DNA from: Methylocapsa sp. S129
Lineage (GTDB): Bacteria > Pseudomonadota > Alphaproteobacteria > Rhizobiales > Beijerinckiaceae
Direction: 5' to 3'
NCBI RefSeq assembly: GCF_009765995.1
Contig: NZ_LMUI01000011.1
Location: forward strand, 789,125-853,124
Length of the DNA stretch: 64,000 nt
Position numbers and translations under genes: made by a program. The notes below the pieces were generated by a model. The model worked only from the letters and a program-made list of their open reading frames with translations, searched no databases and had not been told where the DNA came from. This document shows positions 7,145-11,428 of the stretch, piece after piece (the stretch's first letter is position 1; every line of letters begins with the position of its first letter).

Positions 7145-7164
7145 GGAAAGGCGCTCCTGCCGGT

Positions 7165-7938
7165 TCAGTTCAGGACCTTGAAGCCCTGACGCTCGAAGAT
7201 CGCACGCCCCGCGGGCGACTTCAAATAGGTCAGGAACTTCGCCGCGGCTTCATGATGCGATGAGGCGGTCAGCGCGAAGGGATAAAGGATCGGCGCATGC
7301 GACGCCTCCGGGAATGTGGCGACGACCTTGACGGTGGGATCGGCGACGGCGTCGGTGGCATAGACAATGCCCAGCGGCGCTTCGCCGCGCGCGACAAAGG
7401 CGAGCGCGGCGCGCACGTTGTCGGTCATCGCCAGATGCGGTTCGACGACGCTCCACAGCCCGAGATTGCGTAAAGCTTCCTTCGCATAGCGGCCGACCGG
7501 CACGGTGTTGACCTCGCCGGTTGCCAAATGCCCGGCGCCGATCGCCTTGTCGAAAGCGTCAGGGGTGAGCGCGAGCGTGTCGGTCGCCGATTGCTTGGGG
7601 GCGACGACGACAAGCTGGTTGCCGAGCAGATCGGACCGGCTGTCGGCCTTCACTGCGGCGCCTTTGACGGCTTCGTCCATCGATTCCTCGTCTGCCGAAG
7701 CGAACATGTCAGCCGGCGCCCCGGCGACGATCTGGCGCGCCAGAGCGAGCGAGCCGCCGTAGCTGATCTTGATCTCCGCGCCGCCCTCCGCATGAAAGGC
7801 GACGGAGGCCGCATCGAGCGCGCTCTTCAGGCTCGCGGCGGCGAAGACGACGATGGGTTCATCGGCGCGGGCGGGCCATGCGACACACGGCAGCGCCACG
7901 CAAAGGGCGATGGACGCGAGGCGAAGCAGTGGGCGCAT
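7165..7938 (-). CDS. modA: Molybdate ABC transporter substrate-binding protein
   Basis: A 257-residue periplasmic binding protein with a signal peptide (to about residue 25, ARADEP). It has the ModA hallmarks VFAAASLKSALD, SYGGSLALARQI and GAPADMFASADEESM near residues 30-105, and the closing VGRYAKEAL and PTVKVVATFPEASHAPILYPFAL segments. It would capture molybdate or tungstate. The operon continues with mop, a secreted unknown and a ModE-like gene, but no ModB permease or ModC ATPase is present anywhere in the window. A ModE-type box lies 41 bases upstream. Confidence 0.92.
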   Translation of the reverse strand: MRPLLRLASIALCVALPCVAWPARADEPIVVFAAASLKSALDAASVAFHAEGGAEIKISYGGSLALARQIVAGAPADMFASADEESMDEAVKGAAVKADSRSDLLGNQLVVVAPKQSATDTLALTPDAFDKAIGAGHLATGEVNTVPVGRYAKEALRNLGLWSVVEPHLAMTDNVRAALAFVARGEAPLGIVYATDAVADPTVKVVATFPEASHAPILYPFALTASSHHEAAAKFLTYLKSPAGRAIFERQGFKVLN

Positions 7939-7978
7939 AAATATTTCCGGATTTGTTGGCGGCAGGTCCGTGGCTGCG

Positions 7979-8002
7979 CGCTATTTGCATTAGGATATAG
8001 CG
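7979..8002. promoter_or_regulatory. ModE box upstream of modA
   Basis: Read on the minus strand, the site is CGCTATAT, eight bases, then AAATAGCG. This is a 24-base near-palindrome with the half-site sequence and spacing of known ModE operators (CGnTATAT-N8-ATATAnCG). It is 41 bases upstream of the modA start, where binding would block the promoter. The match was judged by eye from memory of the published consensus. Confidence 0.7.
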
Positions 8003-8035
8003 CTTGGCACGCAGAGACTAGGCGGTAATGGCTCC

Positions 8036-8055
8036 CCTTCCCCCTCGGGGGAAGG
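8036..8055. terminator. GC-rich hairpin after the aminotransferase gene
   Basis: An 8-bp perfect stem (CCTTCCCC / GGGGAAGG) with a four-base loop lies 12 bases downstream of the aminotransferase stop and upstream of the ModE box. There is no T-run, so termination is uncertain. Confidence 0.35.
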
Positions 8056-8067
8056 ATCGCTAGCGCC

Positions 8068-8925
8068 TCACCCCGAATGCGCAAACGCCCAGTAAAGCTC
8101 CCGCGCGCGTCGGAAGGCCGGCCCGGGCTGCAGGTCGCGTTGATCGATGCGGCGCACCGGCGTCACCTTGCCGAAATTGCCGACCACGAAGATCTCGTCC
8201 GCCTCGTCGAAATCGGCAAAGCTCAAGGTTGCTTCCCGCGCATCCTTGCCGTCCTCGCCGAGCAGCTTCAGCACGCGCTGGCGCGTCACGCCATTGAGGA
8301 AGCTGCCATTGGCCATCGGCGTCTTGATCACGCCGTCCTTGGCCATGAATATGTTGGCGGTGGCGAGTTCCGCGACATTGCCGAGCACGTCGCACAGGAT
8401 GCAGTTGTCGAAGCCGCGCGTGCGCGCCTCCATCAGGGCGCGCGCATTATTGGGATAGAGGCAGCCGGCCTTGGCGTCGATCGGCATGGTGTCGGCGGTC
8501 GGCTTGCGATAGGCCGAGCGCGTGATCGCTATGCCGGTCGGCTCGGGCAGCGGCGCTTCATAGATCGACAGCAGGAAGCGCGTCGAATCGGGGTCGGGCG
8601 GCACAGAGCCAACGCCGTTGCGTTCGGCCCAATACATCGGGCGGATATAGAGGGCCGTTCCCGGCGCGAATTTCTTCACGCCTTCGCGCGCCAGCTCGGC
8701 GATCGCCTCTTCGCTCATCGTCGGCTTCAGCCACATAGTTTTGGCCGAACGATTGACCCGCGCGCAATGACGATCGAGATCGGGCGTTACGCCTTCGAAA
8801 GCGCGGGCGCCGTCGAACACGCTGGAGCCGAGCCAGAAAGCATGGCTGCGCGGCCCAAGGATCGGCTTGTTGCCCTCGATCCATTCGCCGTCGAAAAAGG
8901 TGAAAGTCTGCGACCAATCCGCCAT
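8068..8925 (-). CDS. ilvE: Branched-chain amino acid aminotransferase (fold-type IV PLP enzyme)
   Basis: A 285-residue class IV aminotransferase that interconverts branched-chain amino acids and their 2-oxo acids. The ATG at 8925 (MADWSQTFTFFDGEWIEGN) is preferred over the longer frame to 9003, which adds a basic non-conserved segment. The PLP lysine lies in IDAKAGCLYPNNARA, the PLP-nitrogen glutamate in GNVAELATANIF, and YIRPMYWAE is the arginine/tyrosine substrate loop. It appears monocistronic. D-amino-acid transaminase or aminodeoxychorismate lyase are relatives, but the length and motifs favour IlvE. Confidence 0.85.
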   Translation of the reverse strand: MADWSQTFTFFDGEWIEGNKPILGPRSHAFWLGSSVFDGARAFEGVTPDLDRHCARVNRSAKTMWLKPTMSEEAIAELAREGVKKFAPGTALYIRPMYWAERNGVGSVPPDPDSTRFLLSIYEAPLPEPTGIAITRSAYRKPTADTMPIDAKAGCLYPNNARALMEARTRGFDNCILCDVLGNVAELATANIFMAKDGVIKTPMANGSFLNGVTRQRVLKLLGEDGKDAREATLSFADFDEADEIFVVGNFGKVTPVRRIDQRDLQPGPAFRRARELYWAFAHSG

Positions 8926-9084: not shown

Positions 9085-10008
9085 ATGGGCTGGCTGCTCG
9101 ATAATTCCCTCGCGGACATGCGGGGCCCCGATTTCCTGATGTTTTACGGAATATTCGCCTGCGTCGTTCTGATCGGCGCTTATTTCTACCTCGAGACGCG
9201 GGACACGACAGGCGGAATGACGCCGCCCCCGACGCCGCGCGATATCGATCCCTATGAACTCTCCTACTTGCGCGGCGGGATCAATGAAATCATTCGCACG
9301 GTGATCTATGCGCTCCGCCAGAAGGGGCTGATCGCCTTCGAGAAGGGGCGCATCCAGGCCAGCGGCGTCAGCGCGCAGGAACTCGCGCCTATCGAACGCC
9401 TTGTTTTCGATGCGGTGTCGCCCGCGCCGAAAATCGCCGCGCTGTTCGCGGACAGGGATCTGCGAAACGCTCTGGAGCGCTTGTGCGGCGCCGCCAAACA
9501 ACGCTTGTCGGCCCAGCAATTGCTCGCGCCGCCGGAGATTCGCCGCGCCGGCTATTTCGCGTTGGCGATCGCTGGCGGCCTGCTCGTCGCGTTCGCCGCC
9601 TACAAGGCCTGGGCGGCCATCATGCACGGCCGGTCGAATCTCGGCTTTTTGTTCATCGAGACGGCGTGGTCGTGCGGCGCGCTTTTCTTGATATTCCGGA
9701 AGAAGACCGCCAGCGTCGCCAGCAAACGCGGCAAGGCTTTTCTGGCGCAGATTCAACTGGCCTATTCCGGCCATGTCGGCGCCGTTTTCGGCGCCGCGAC
9801 TGAGGGGATCGGGGGGAGCGCAGCGGCGGGCGGCGCCGCGCTGCTCATGGTGGGCCTGTTCGGCTTCGCCATCTTGAAGGGCACGCCCGACGCGGCGCTC
9901 GCCCAGGCGTTCGCGCAATCGTCTGGATCGGGCGGCGATGGCGGCGGCGGATGTGGGGGCGGTGGCGGAGGGGGGTGTGGCGGCTGCGGCGGCGGGGGAG
10001 GAGACTAG
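9085..10008 (+). CDS. TIGR04222-type membrane protein with C-terminal Gly/Cys tail
   Basis: A 307-residue protein. The ATG at 9085 is chosen for the AGGGGG about eight bases upstream. It has an N-terminal membrane segment (about 17-36), a cytosolic-looking domain with the family YLRGG motif at 61-65, and three further hydrophobic segments (about 156-175, 187-204, 246-265). The last 27 residues are almost only glycine with Cys at 290, 298 and 301 and a terminal Asp307. This matches the TIGR04222 family, defined by such tails and functionally uncharacterised. Its stop lies two bases from the next gene, a DUF692 oxygenase; the tail is therefore a candidate substrate for that enzyme (inference). 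Confidence 0.8.
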   Translation: MGWLLDNSLADMRGPDFLMFYGIFACVVLIGAYFYLETRDTTGGMTPPPTPRDIDPYELSYLRGGINEIIRTVIYALRQKGLIAFEKGRIQASGVSAQELAPIERLVFDAVSPAPKIAALFADRDLRNALERLCGAAKQRLSAQQLLAPPEIRRAGYFALAIAGGLLVAFAAYKAWAAIMHGRSNLGFLFIETAWSCGALFLIFRKKTASVASKRGKAFLAQIQLAYSGHVGAVFGAATEGIGGSAAAGGAALLMVGLFGFAILKGTPDAALAQAFAQSSGSGGDGGGGCGGGGGGGCGGCGGGGGD

Positions 10009-10010
10009 CG

Positions 10011-10850
10011 ATGGCCGCACTCGCCGATCTCACGCCTCTTGGGGTCGGCCTTGGCTATCGTGCGCCGTTTCGCGCCGATCTGTTCGCCAGTCGCGAAAGG
10101 GTCGATTTTCTGGAGGTGATCGCCGATCATTATTTCGACGCGGCCCAGGAAAAGCTTGATGAGCTTGATCTGCTCGCCAATCATTTCACGCTGATCCCGC
10201 ATGGGCTCGATCTGTCGATCGGCAGCGCCGAGGGGATCGATAGCGCTTATCTCGATCGCTTCGCCGCGCTGATCGACCGGCTCGATCCGCCCTATTGGAG
10301 CGAGCATCTTTCGTTCACGCGCGCCGGCGGCGTTTCGATCGGCCATCTCGCCTGCCTGCCCTATACGCGGGAAGCGGTGGACGCGGTTGTCCGGAACGTC
10401 GAGATCGTCCGCCGGCGGATCAAGGTTCCGCTGATCCTCGAGAACATCACCGCGACGGTGTTGATTCCGGGCGCGGAAATGGACGAGCCGGCATTTGTCG
10501 ACGCGGTGCTCAGCGAGGCCGATTGCGGCTGGCTGTGCGACGTGACCAACCTCTTCACCAATGCGGTCAACGAGGGGCGCGATGTCTCGGCCGAACTCGA
10601 TCGCTGGCCATGGGAGCGCGTCGTGCAGATGCATTTTGCCGGCGGCCGCATCAGCGAGGGCGTGCTGATCGACAGTCACGACGGGCCGACCTCACCGGAG
10701 GTCTGGCGCCTGCTAGAGGCGGCGGTCGCCCGCTCCAAGGTGAAAGGCATCATCCTGGAGCGCGACGAACGCCTGCCGCCGTTCGGCCAATTGCTGGATG
10801 AACTCGACAAGGCGCGCGCGATCGGCCGATGGCTCGGGCGATGGCCTTAA
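10011..10850 (+). CDS. DUF692 family multinuclear non-heme iron oxygenase (MNIO), MbnB/BufB-like
   Basis: A 279-residue TIM-barrel protein of the DUF692 (MNIO) family. The start at 10011 is preceded by GGAGGAG inside the end of the upstream gene. Likely metal ligands are conserved: His40 (ADHYFD), His64 (IPHGLDLSIGS), Glu98/His99 (WSEHLSFT), Glu144/Asn145 (LENITA), Asp177 (CDVTN), His208 (QMHFAGG), Asp221/His223 (DSHDGPT) and Glu250 (LERDE). Characterised relatives (MbnB, BufB/HvfB, TglH) use two or three irons to oxidise Cys or acidic residues in ribosomal peptides. The substrate here is probably the adjacent Gly/Cys tail, unproven. Confidence 0.88.
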   Translation: MAALADLTPLGVGLGYRAPFRADLFASRERVDFLEVIADHYFDAAQEKLDELDLLANHFTLIPHGLDLSIGSAEGIDSAYLDRFAALIDRLDPPYWSEHLSFTRAGGVSIGHLACLPYTREAVDAVVRNVEIVRRRIKVPLILENITATVLIPGAEMDEPAFVDAVLSEADCGWLCDVTNLFTNAVNEGRDVSAELDRWPWERVVQMHFAGGRISEGVLIDSHDGPTSPEVWRLLEAAVARSKVKGIILERDERLPPFGQLLDELDKARAIGRWLGRWP

Positions 10851-11428
10851 GCGCGGTTCAGGCGGCGCTGGCGCGCCTGTTCACCGACGAGGCGGCGCGC
10901 GCGGCCTTTCTGCGCGATCCGCAGGGCGCGGGGCGCTCGCTTGGGCTCGATGAAGGCGAGGCCAACATGCTCGCGGCGATCGCGCCGAAAGCCTTGCGTC
11001 AGTTCGCCGGCGGCCTGAAAGCCAAACGCGCGCTCGACGCGCGCAAAGCGATGCCGCTCACCGCCAAAGCGCTTGGCGAGGCTTTCGGCCGTCATTTCCG
11101 CGCCGCCGCGCAATCGGCGCCGGCCGGCGCCAGCCGCGTGAGAGAAGCGCGGGCGCTCGCGATGCGGCTCGCCGCGCTCGCTCATGAGCGCAAGTTTGAG
11201 CCCAAATGGGCCGGCGATCTCGCTCGCTACGAGGCGGCTTTCGTCGAGGCCGCGCACAGGCGATTCGGGTTGCGGTTGCTGTGGTTTGGCTATCCCGTCG
11301 GCGCCATCGCCGCATCGCTTCACGCCGGCGCCCCCGTCAGCGCTATCGCTCCGGCAACGACGCTCGGCCTATGGGCGCGGCGGCCGGGAGGACGGCTCTT
11401 CCATCGCTTATGGTCCTTGACGCGTTGA
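10829..11428 (+). CDS. Helical partner protein of the DUF692 enzyme, unknown family
   Basis: A protein of 199 residues, or 195 if the second ATG at 10841 is used (MALSAVQAALARLFTDEAARAAFLRDP, which looks the better N-terminus). It overlaps the DUF692 stop, implying translational coupling. The first 60 residues (FLRDPQGAGRSLGLDEGEANMLAAIAPKAL) resemble the short helical leader-binding or LigA-like modules found beside MNIO enzymes. The remainder is Arg/Ala-rich helix with a hydrophobic stretch near 155-175. MNIO enzymes generally need such a partner to bind substrate, so it is interpreted as the MbnC/BufC analogue. No sequence family was recognised with certainty. Confidence 0.6.
   Translation: MARAMALSAVQAALARLFTDEAARAAFLRDPQGAGRSLGLDEGEANMLAAIAPKALRQFAGGLKAKRALDARKAMPLTAKALGEAFGRHFRAAAQSAPAGASRVREARALAMRLAALAHERKFEPKWAGDLARYEAAFVEAAHRRFGLRLLWFGYPVGAIAASLHAGAPVSAIAPATTLGLWARRPGGRLFHRLWSLTR

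What the first reader, a model, noticed from the sequence alone, without database searches (positions are those of the whole stretch)
9085..11428. Candidate protein-modification system: DUF692 iron oxygenase with a Gly/Cys-tailed membrane protein as substrate
Seen: three tightly spaced plus-strand genes. The first is a four-helix membrane protein whose last 27 residues are glycine-rich with Cys290, Cys298, Cys301 and a terminal Asp. The second is a DUF692/MNIO enzyme retaining its probable iron ligands. The third overlaps it and looks like the helical partner. Known: MNIO enzymes with a partner protein oxidise Cys or acidic residues in ribosomal peptides (methanobactin, bufferins/HvfA, 3-thiaglutamate). 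Inference: here the substrate is not a free peptide but a tail tethered to the membrane, whose cysteines could become a copper- or metal-binding thioamide/oxazolone-like group. The family tail (TIGR04222) has no known role, so this may be an undescribed post-translational modification.
Basis: partly seen in the sequence, partly recalled or inferred. Interest (0 to 1): 0.88.

Follow-up and report, generated by a model that had tools for sequence, protein, structure and literature searches.

The report
Membrane protein tail, candidate oxygenase substrate
Three neighbouring bacterial genes look like a membrane protein with a glycine- and cysteine-rich tail, an iron enzyme that probably oxidises that tail, and the enzyme's helper; the pairing has been predicted in print before, but related genomes suggest that two other kinds of protein can stand in for the enzyme beside the same kind of tail.

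Summary
In detail: genes at 9085-10008, 10011-10850 and 10841-11428 encode a TIGR04222 membrane protein ending in 21 Gly and 3 Cys of 27 residues, an MNIO (DUF692) enzyme, and a helper whose model matches TglI, the TglH partner. The idea is not new: Antoine et al. 2025 (PMC12452194) proposed TIGR04222 tails as MNIO substrates with PME-type 2 partners.

What I add: of 48 TIGR04222 loci, 40 have at least 2 tail Cys; beside these lie an MNIO (21), a GRDP-like domain (14) or an SbtM-related radical SAM gene (3); the other 2 stop at contig ends. Of 6 usable Cys-poor loci none has a companion. In one Methylocystis clade MNIO, partner and tail are missing together (one event). SbtM and an oxazolin-type MNIO both make thiooxazole from Cys, so 5-thiooxazole on the tail, exposed in the periplasm and perhaps binding copper, is my best guess. 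Against it: 10 of 17 genomes with GRDP- or rSAM-linked Cys tails show no MNIO, a Streptomyces MNIO-linked protein lacks tail Cys, and no chemistry was tested. Verdict: real, known kind, with a testable extension.

The parts
9085..10008 (+). Gene A: TIGR04222 membrane protein, 307 aa, four hydrophobic segments, probable N-out/C-out topology
9925..10005 (+). Tail of gene A, residues 281-307: 21 Gly, 3 Cys (290, 298, 301), ends in Asp; pLDDT under 50 in the model; candidate substrate
9196..9546 (+). Soluble helical loop of gene A (residues 38-154), winged-helix-like by eye, probably cytoplasmic by the positive-inside rule
   Evidence: inference
10011..10850 (+). Gene B: MNIO/DUF692 (PF05114) iron oxygenase, 279 aa
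10841..11428 (+). Gene C: partner protein, 195 aa, TglI-like fold (PME-type 2 class)

Best explanation
Genes B and C form a cytoplasmic MNIO-partner pair that oxidises the tail cysteines of gene A, most likely each to a 5-thiooxazole (loss of four hydrogens), before the tail crosses the membrane behind the last hydrophobic segment. The result would be a membrane-anchored, periplasm-facing, soft-metal-binding tail, perhaps for copper: like a bufferin, but tethered rather than secreted. Shown: the genes, their families, conserved linkage, partner fold, joint absence. Inferred: that the tail Cys are the substrate (about 0.85), 5-thiooxazole as product (about 0.55), topology (about 0.75), metal binding as role (about 0.5).
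For: Tight operon with no room for another precursor. 48 TIGR04222 loci above cut-off: 40 have at least 2 Cys in the last 45 residues, with MNIO 0-179 bp away in 21, a GRDP-like domain fused or 0-3 bp away in 14, an SbtM-related radical SAM gene in 3, nothing in 2 that stop at contig ends; 0 of 6 usable Cys-poor loci has a companion. Fisher p 1.4e-7 for 38/38 against 0/6, ignoring relatedness. Partner hit in 19 of 21 MNIO loci and 0 of 27 others at E 1e-3 (9 of the 19 went into that HMM). L033, L042 and L046 keep the membrane protein and the FliJ-like neighbour but lack MNIO, partner and tail; one clade, support 99/99 in a tree of 30 rows. Partner model matches TglI. L199 holds a protein over the SbtM cut-off (494 against 350), 1 of 237 genomes of that phylum; SbtM makes thiooxazole (PMC11002830 passages) and HvfB, an MNIO, makes 5-thiooxazole (PMC13419390 passages). 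Charge bias places the tail outside in 12 of 12 aligned rows.
Against: No chemistry tested. Of 17 genomes whose Cys tail is GRDP- or rSAM-linked, 10 show no MNIO (one is 77% complete and two have no completeness told), so such tails exist without it. A Streptomyces TIGR04222 frame downstream of an MNIO (L214) ends without Cys. The joint absence is one event, and L042 is cut 32 bases upstream of the gene. L109 and L110 rSAMs score 114 and 142 on SbtM, below its cut-off; the true SbtM in L199 lies about 1.8 kb from the TIGR04222 gene with another ORF between. PMC12452194 says over a quarter of TIGR04222 proteins lack C-proximal Cys. The window tail lacks the CGSSC-type spacing seen in many relatives. 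Three of the 48 loci (window, L137, L138) are in the count because their genomes were the centres of searches.
Confidence: 0.6

Rival explanations
1. The MNIO modifies the tail Cys, but the product is different: oxazolone/thioamide as in methanobactin, or Cys beta-carbon removal as in 3-thiaglutamate.
For: The partner fold is closest to TglI. MNIO chemistry varies across the family (PMC12452194 section 21).
Against: The best NCBIfam model is the bufferin maturase BufB (222 bits, below its cut-off 310); MbnB scores 53.8 of 325. SbtM-related genes take the same place. The TglA Cys is one enzyme-added C-terminal residue (start of the PMC9016710 abstract in the listing), unlike several internal Cys.
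Confidence: 0.2
2. The Cys tail works unmodified (metal-binding or disulfide-forming), and MNIO, GRDP-like domain or rSAM acts on another protein or another part of the membrane protein.
For: 10 of 17 genomes with GRDP- or rSAM-linked Cys tails show no MNIO. The scaffold without tail persists in three species. L214 has MNIO without tail Cys.
Against: Companion and Cys tail co-occur in 38 of 38 usable loci and are jointly absent in 6 of 6. The GRDP-like domain also precedes Cys-rich tails on other scaffolds.
Confidence: 0.13
3. The MNIO acts on a non-Cys residue such as the tail's terminal Asp.
For: Some MNIO-modified precursors are changed on Asp, Asn or Phe (PMC12452194 section 21); the window tail ends in Asp.
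Against: The last residue of the 21 MNIO-linked tails is D, N, S, G or E. Cys is the shared feature.
Confidence: 0.04

Closest known systems
TIGR04222-MNIO-PME-type 2 clusters (Antoine et al. 2025, PMC12452194)
   Same: Same three gene kinds; Gly/Ser/Cys tail; predicted periplasmic tail; MNIOs close to bufferin maturases
   Different: That paper reports mostly Actinomycetota and large extracytoplasmic domains; here the genome shares a family with Methylocystis, and charge bias places the soluble loop in the cytoplasm. Its main text does not contain SbtM, GRDP or SPASM
Bufferins / oxazolin / captophorins
   Same: MNIO plus partner acting on Cys; exported product
   Different: Those are Sec-exported precursors with DUF2063 (PME-type 1) partners; here a membrane protein with a PME-type 2-like partner
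SbtA/SbtM thio(seleno)oxazole RiPPs
   Same: An SbtM gene near a Cys-tailed TIGR04222 gene in L199; same proposed product class
   Different: Radical SAM enzyme, not MNIO; not in the window
TglA/TglH/TglI (3-thiaglutamate)
   Same: MNIO and partner fold
   Different: Substrate is a peptide with an enzyme-added C-terminal Cys
GRDP / DUF1399 proteins (PF07173) of plants
   Same: A related domain with a Gly-rich C-terminal region holding interspersed Cys (PMC4299439 passage), as in the bacterial alternatives found here
   Different: No MNIO known to be involved; biochemical function unknown; not in the window

Membership tests
MNIO / DUF692 (PF05114) | Match over curated cut-off | tested here: met
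   277 bits, cut-off 25
MNIO / DUF692 (PF05114) | Metal-type residues conserved | tested here: met
   H64, H99, E144, D177, N180, H208, D221, H223, E250 each 21 of 21; ligand role taken from alignment to 3bww/TglH and HvfB N175, D242, H244 (PMC13419390 passages), not from a structure of this protein
MNIO / DUF692 (PF05114) | Iron-dependent oxidation of a peptide | not testable with these tools
   needs enzymology
TIGR04222 membrane protein | Match over curated cut-off | tested here: met
   96.1 bits, cut-off 43
TIGR04222-MNIO-PME-type 2 cluster | Cys-containing low-complexity C-terminal tail, gene before an MNIO gene | tested here: met
TIGR04222-MNIO-PME-type 2 cluster | Partner without DUF2063 signature but with TglI-like fold | tested here: met
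   no Pfam hit at E 1; TglI the only fold matches at E <= 0.001
TIGR04222-MNIO-PME-type 2 cluster | Tail modified by the MNIO | not testable with these tools
   not shown for any member in the papers seen
Bufferin (Buf1/Buf2/EGKCG) | DUF2063 (PME-type 1) partner | tested here: not met
   no DUF2063 hit
Bufferin (Buf1/Buf2/EGKCG) | MNIO over the BufB equivalog cut-off | tested here: not met
   222 bits, cut-off 310
Bufferin (Buf1/Buf2/EGKCG) | Sec signal peptide on the precursor | not tested
   no signal-peptide predictor run
Methanobactin (MbnA/B/C) | MNIO over the MbnB cut-off | tested here: not met
   53.8 bits, cut-off 325

The most novel reading that the evidence does not exclude
Gly/Cys tails of membrane proteins are a general acceptor for thiooxazole-type modification, and three unrelated modules (MNIO plus partner, SbtM-like radical SAM, and a GRDP-like domain with invariant D, W-H, C and H residues) are interchangeable tail-modifying enzymes. 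The GRDP-like domain (related to PF07173, shared with plant GRDPs that also end in a Gly-rich, Cys-containing region) would then be an unrecognised enzyme family that acts on its own tail, in bacteria and plants.
Probability: 0.22. Interest if true: 0.9.

Novelty: new member of a known kind. Interest (0 to 1): 0.6.

Why it matters
If true, MNIO-type copper-binding heterocycles occur not only on secreted peptides but as fixed parts of membrane proteins. The apparent exchange of MNIO for SbtM-related enzymes gives a concrete product prediction for an uncharacterised family (more than 3,500 proteins at under 90% identity, number from PMC12452194), and the third stand-in, the GRDP-like domain, gives a biochemical hypothesis for a domain of unknown function shared with plants.

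Tried and rejected
TIGR04222-MNIO fusion in L135: rejected; the tail stretch reads out of frame in that draft assembly. Radical SAM signals beside nine Methylocystis-type loci: not companions; the L033 gene is PqqE (507 bits, cut-off 381), the L045 fragment has PqqE as best hit, and the other seven were taken as the same by clustering. GRDP identity: Pfam scans of single proteins and a PF07173 search of 16 genomes gave nothing over cut-off; the link rests on a Stanieria member just over cut-off (23.3, cut-off 22.7), three others below it, and my own HMM joining them to the TIGR04222-linked domains. PDB fold search with gene A: best E 0.86. Methanotrophy: own genome has no PF02461 match. Chloroflexi phylum search: 2 of 301 genomes over cut-off. 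SbtM-like query in plasmids: no match at E 1e-30. The 22 loci were picked by one sequence pattern close to the window family and are not in the 48-locus count, except L137 and L138, whose genomes then served as centres and were therefore in those samples by construction. The HMMs were built from loci that they then classify, so those members match by construction; MNIO calls for the 19 family genomes were checked with PF05114. Set aside before the Fisher test: L111, L112, L114 (contig ends) and L209 (another tail type).

Full report
OBSERVATION. The three plus-strand genes are real. A (9085-10008, 307 aa), B (10011-10850, 279 aa) and C (10841-11428, 195 aa) are packed with a 2 bp gap and a 10 bp overlap. 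A is a TIGR04222 protein (96.1 bits, cut-off 43) with four hydrophobic segments; its last 27 residues hold 21 Gly, 3 Cys (290, 298, 301), 2 Asp and 1 Ser. B is an MNIO (PF05114, 277 bits), nearest the bufferin maturase model (222 bits, below its cut-off 310). C has no Pfam family; its AlphaFold2 model (pLDDT 88) matches TglI, the partner of TglH, and no other PDB chain at E 0.001. Weak N-terminal similarity of C to the NHLP leader clan (33.3 bits, below cut-off 40) is noted, not interpreted.

PRIOR WORK. Antoine et al. 2025 (PMC12452194; abstract, sections 16, 18 and 21 and passages seen) describe TIGR04222 proteins with Cys in Gly/Ser-rich tails next to MNIO genes, call subsets of them likely substrates, predict the tail in the periplasm, and find PME-type 2 partners in at least 10% of TIGR04222 clusters. 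In the held library TIGR04222 occurs in 2 papers (the second, PMC5183585, was seen only in the listing), and TIGR04222 with DUF692 in one. The central idea of the finding is thus in print as an in silico proposal.

LINKAGE ACROSS GENOMES. TIGR04222 above cut-off: family 18 of 199 genomes, order 9 of 397, phylum 14 of 398, phylum of an Acidobacteria MAG 14 of 297, phylum of a Chloroflexi MAG 2 of 301; samples overlap, and the centre genome is always in. The 48 distinct loci were classified with HMMs built here. At least 2 Cys in the last 45 residues: 40. Companions: MNIO 0-179 bp away in 21; a GRDP-like domain fused or 0-3 bp away in 14; an SbtM-related radical SAM gene in 3 (L109 and L110 at 4 bp; L199 about 1.8 kb away); none in 2 (L112, L114), both cut by contig ends. 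Fewer than 2 Cys: 7, of which L111 is cut by a contig end and 6 (L033, L042, L046, L113, L118, L210) have none of the three; L042 is itself cut 32 bases upstream. L209 is set apart (below). No locus has two of the three, once the PqqE gene of the PQQ cluster near Methylocystis-type loci is discounted. Fisher p 1.4e-7 on 38/38 and 0/6; the loci are related, so this is a guide only. The partner HMM hits 19 of 21 MNIO loci (9 of them used to build it) and 0 of 27 others.

JOINT ABSENCE. L033, L042 and L046 keep the FliJ-like gene (34.6 bits, below the cut-off 50.45) that also follows the triad in L036, L037, L038, L040 and L043-L045, but MNIO and partner are missing and the protein ends before the tail. 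They form one clade (99/99) in a tree of 30 of the loci then held, so it is one event; that it was a loss is inferred, all other rows having MNIO. Two of these genomes show no MNIO at all, the third has one elsewhere (367 bits). The body of the protein survives without tail, so it probably has a role of its own. These genomes belong to genus g18, which holds Methylocystis (L038 and L122 share a contig of 58,201 bases).

PRODUCT. HvfB makes 5-thiooxazole (PMC13419390 passages), and PMC12668002 (passages) reports the same group for fontiphorin, gonophorin and oxazolin. SbtM, a radical SAM enzyme, makes thiooxazole from Cys with loss of four hydrogens (PMC11002830 passages; the primary paper was not held). 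L199 holds a protein of 494 bits on the SbtM model (cut-off 350), the only one over cut-off in 237 genomes of that phylum. It lies about 1.8 kb from a TIGR04222 gene with 7 tail Cys, with another ORF, by eye a potassium-channel type protein, between them; that genome shows no MNIO. The adjacent rSAMs in L109 and L110 are more distant relatives (114 and 142 bits), as is L139 (127 bits), found by pattern and outside the 48. Replacement of one thiooxazole maker by relatives of another beside the same scaffold points to thiooxazole in the window. This is inference.

TOPOLOGY. N-terminus net -1 to -3 and the loop before the last hydrophobic segment +3 to +10 in 12 of 12 aligned rows: N-out, soluble loop in, tail out. 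This agrees with PMC12452194 on the tail and differs on the loop, which that paper calls periplasmic. The model of A (mean pLDDT 80) shows helix-helix-hairpin in the loop, winged-helix-like by eye; a fold search gave no significant match.

RESULTS AGAINST. Of the 17 genomes with a GRDP- or rSAM-linked Cys tail, 10 show no MNIO. Actinomycetota were sampled only through four plasmid records: Tsukamurella L213 (7 Cys in the last 45) and Nonomuraea L215 (3 and 4 Cys) fit; Streptomyces L214 does not, its TIGR04222 frame after the MNIO ending without Cys; Streptomyces L216 shows no TIGR04222 by this HMM. The window's genome has no pMMO match, so a methanotroph copper role is not implied for it.

THE GRDP-LIKE STAND-IN. 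In 21 proteins the domain has D, W-H, C and H identical at five positions in 21 of 21, and H at two more in 20 of 21. On plasmids it occurs in 11 records; of the 7 examined, Rhizobium, Jeotgalibacillus, Planktothrix and Gloeothece proteins end in Gly/Cys tails, Cupriavidus ends in Cys-containing YCA-type repeats, Deinococcus shows such a tail only in another frame, and Stanieria has none. Plant AtGRDP2 has a DUF1399 domain and a Gly-rich region with interspersed Cys (PMC4299439 passage). That the domain is an enzyme is a hypothesis.

VERDICT. A sound observation of a system already proposed in print; the likely chemistry and the exchange of three companions are the new, testable part.

Noticed in passing
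L030-L032, L034, L035, L039, L105-L108, L115-L117, L206: Cys-tailed TIGR04222 proteins without adjacent MNIO carry a fused or adjacent GRDP-like (PF07173-related) domain with invariant D, W-H, C, H residues
   Followed up: partly
L109 4747-5802, L110 4780-5823, L199 3076 to about 4053, L139 6919-8043: SbtM or SbtM-related radical SAM/SPASM genes beside or near Cys-tailed TIGR04222 genes
   Followed up: partly
L209 4084-6834 and about 7149-8240: Large membrane protein (DUF2207-like by eye) with a CHSA-repeat tail, followed by a radical SAM gene with no family over cut-off (PqqE 100, HxsC4 96 bits): perhaps another tethered tail
   Followed up: no
L241 2959-3597: Cupriavidus GRDP-like protein ending in Cys-containing YCAR-type repeats
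   Followed up: no
L237 2950-3708 and L242 2629-3735: GRDP-like domain with Gly/Cys tail on proteins that do not match my TIGR04222 HMM
   Followed up: partly
L048 4950-5852: Second MNIO of the window's genome, higher scoring (364 bits on PF05114); bufferin-type is a guess
   Followed up: no
L215 2013-2987 and 3027-3989: Nonomuraea has two TIGR04222-like genes in tandem before MNIO, and a weak partner-like hit after it
   Followed up: no
window 10853-11023: N-terminal part of gene C weakly resembles an NHLP leader-clan family (33.3 bits, cut-off 40)
   Followed up: no
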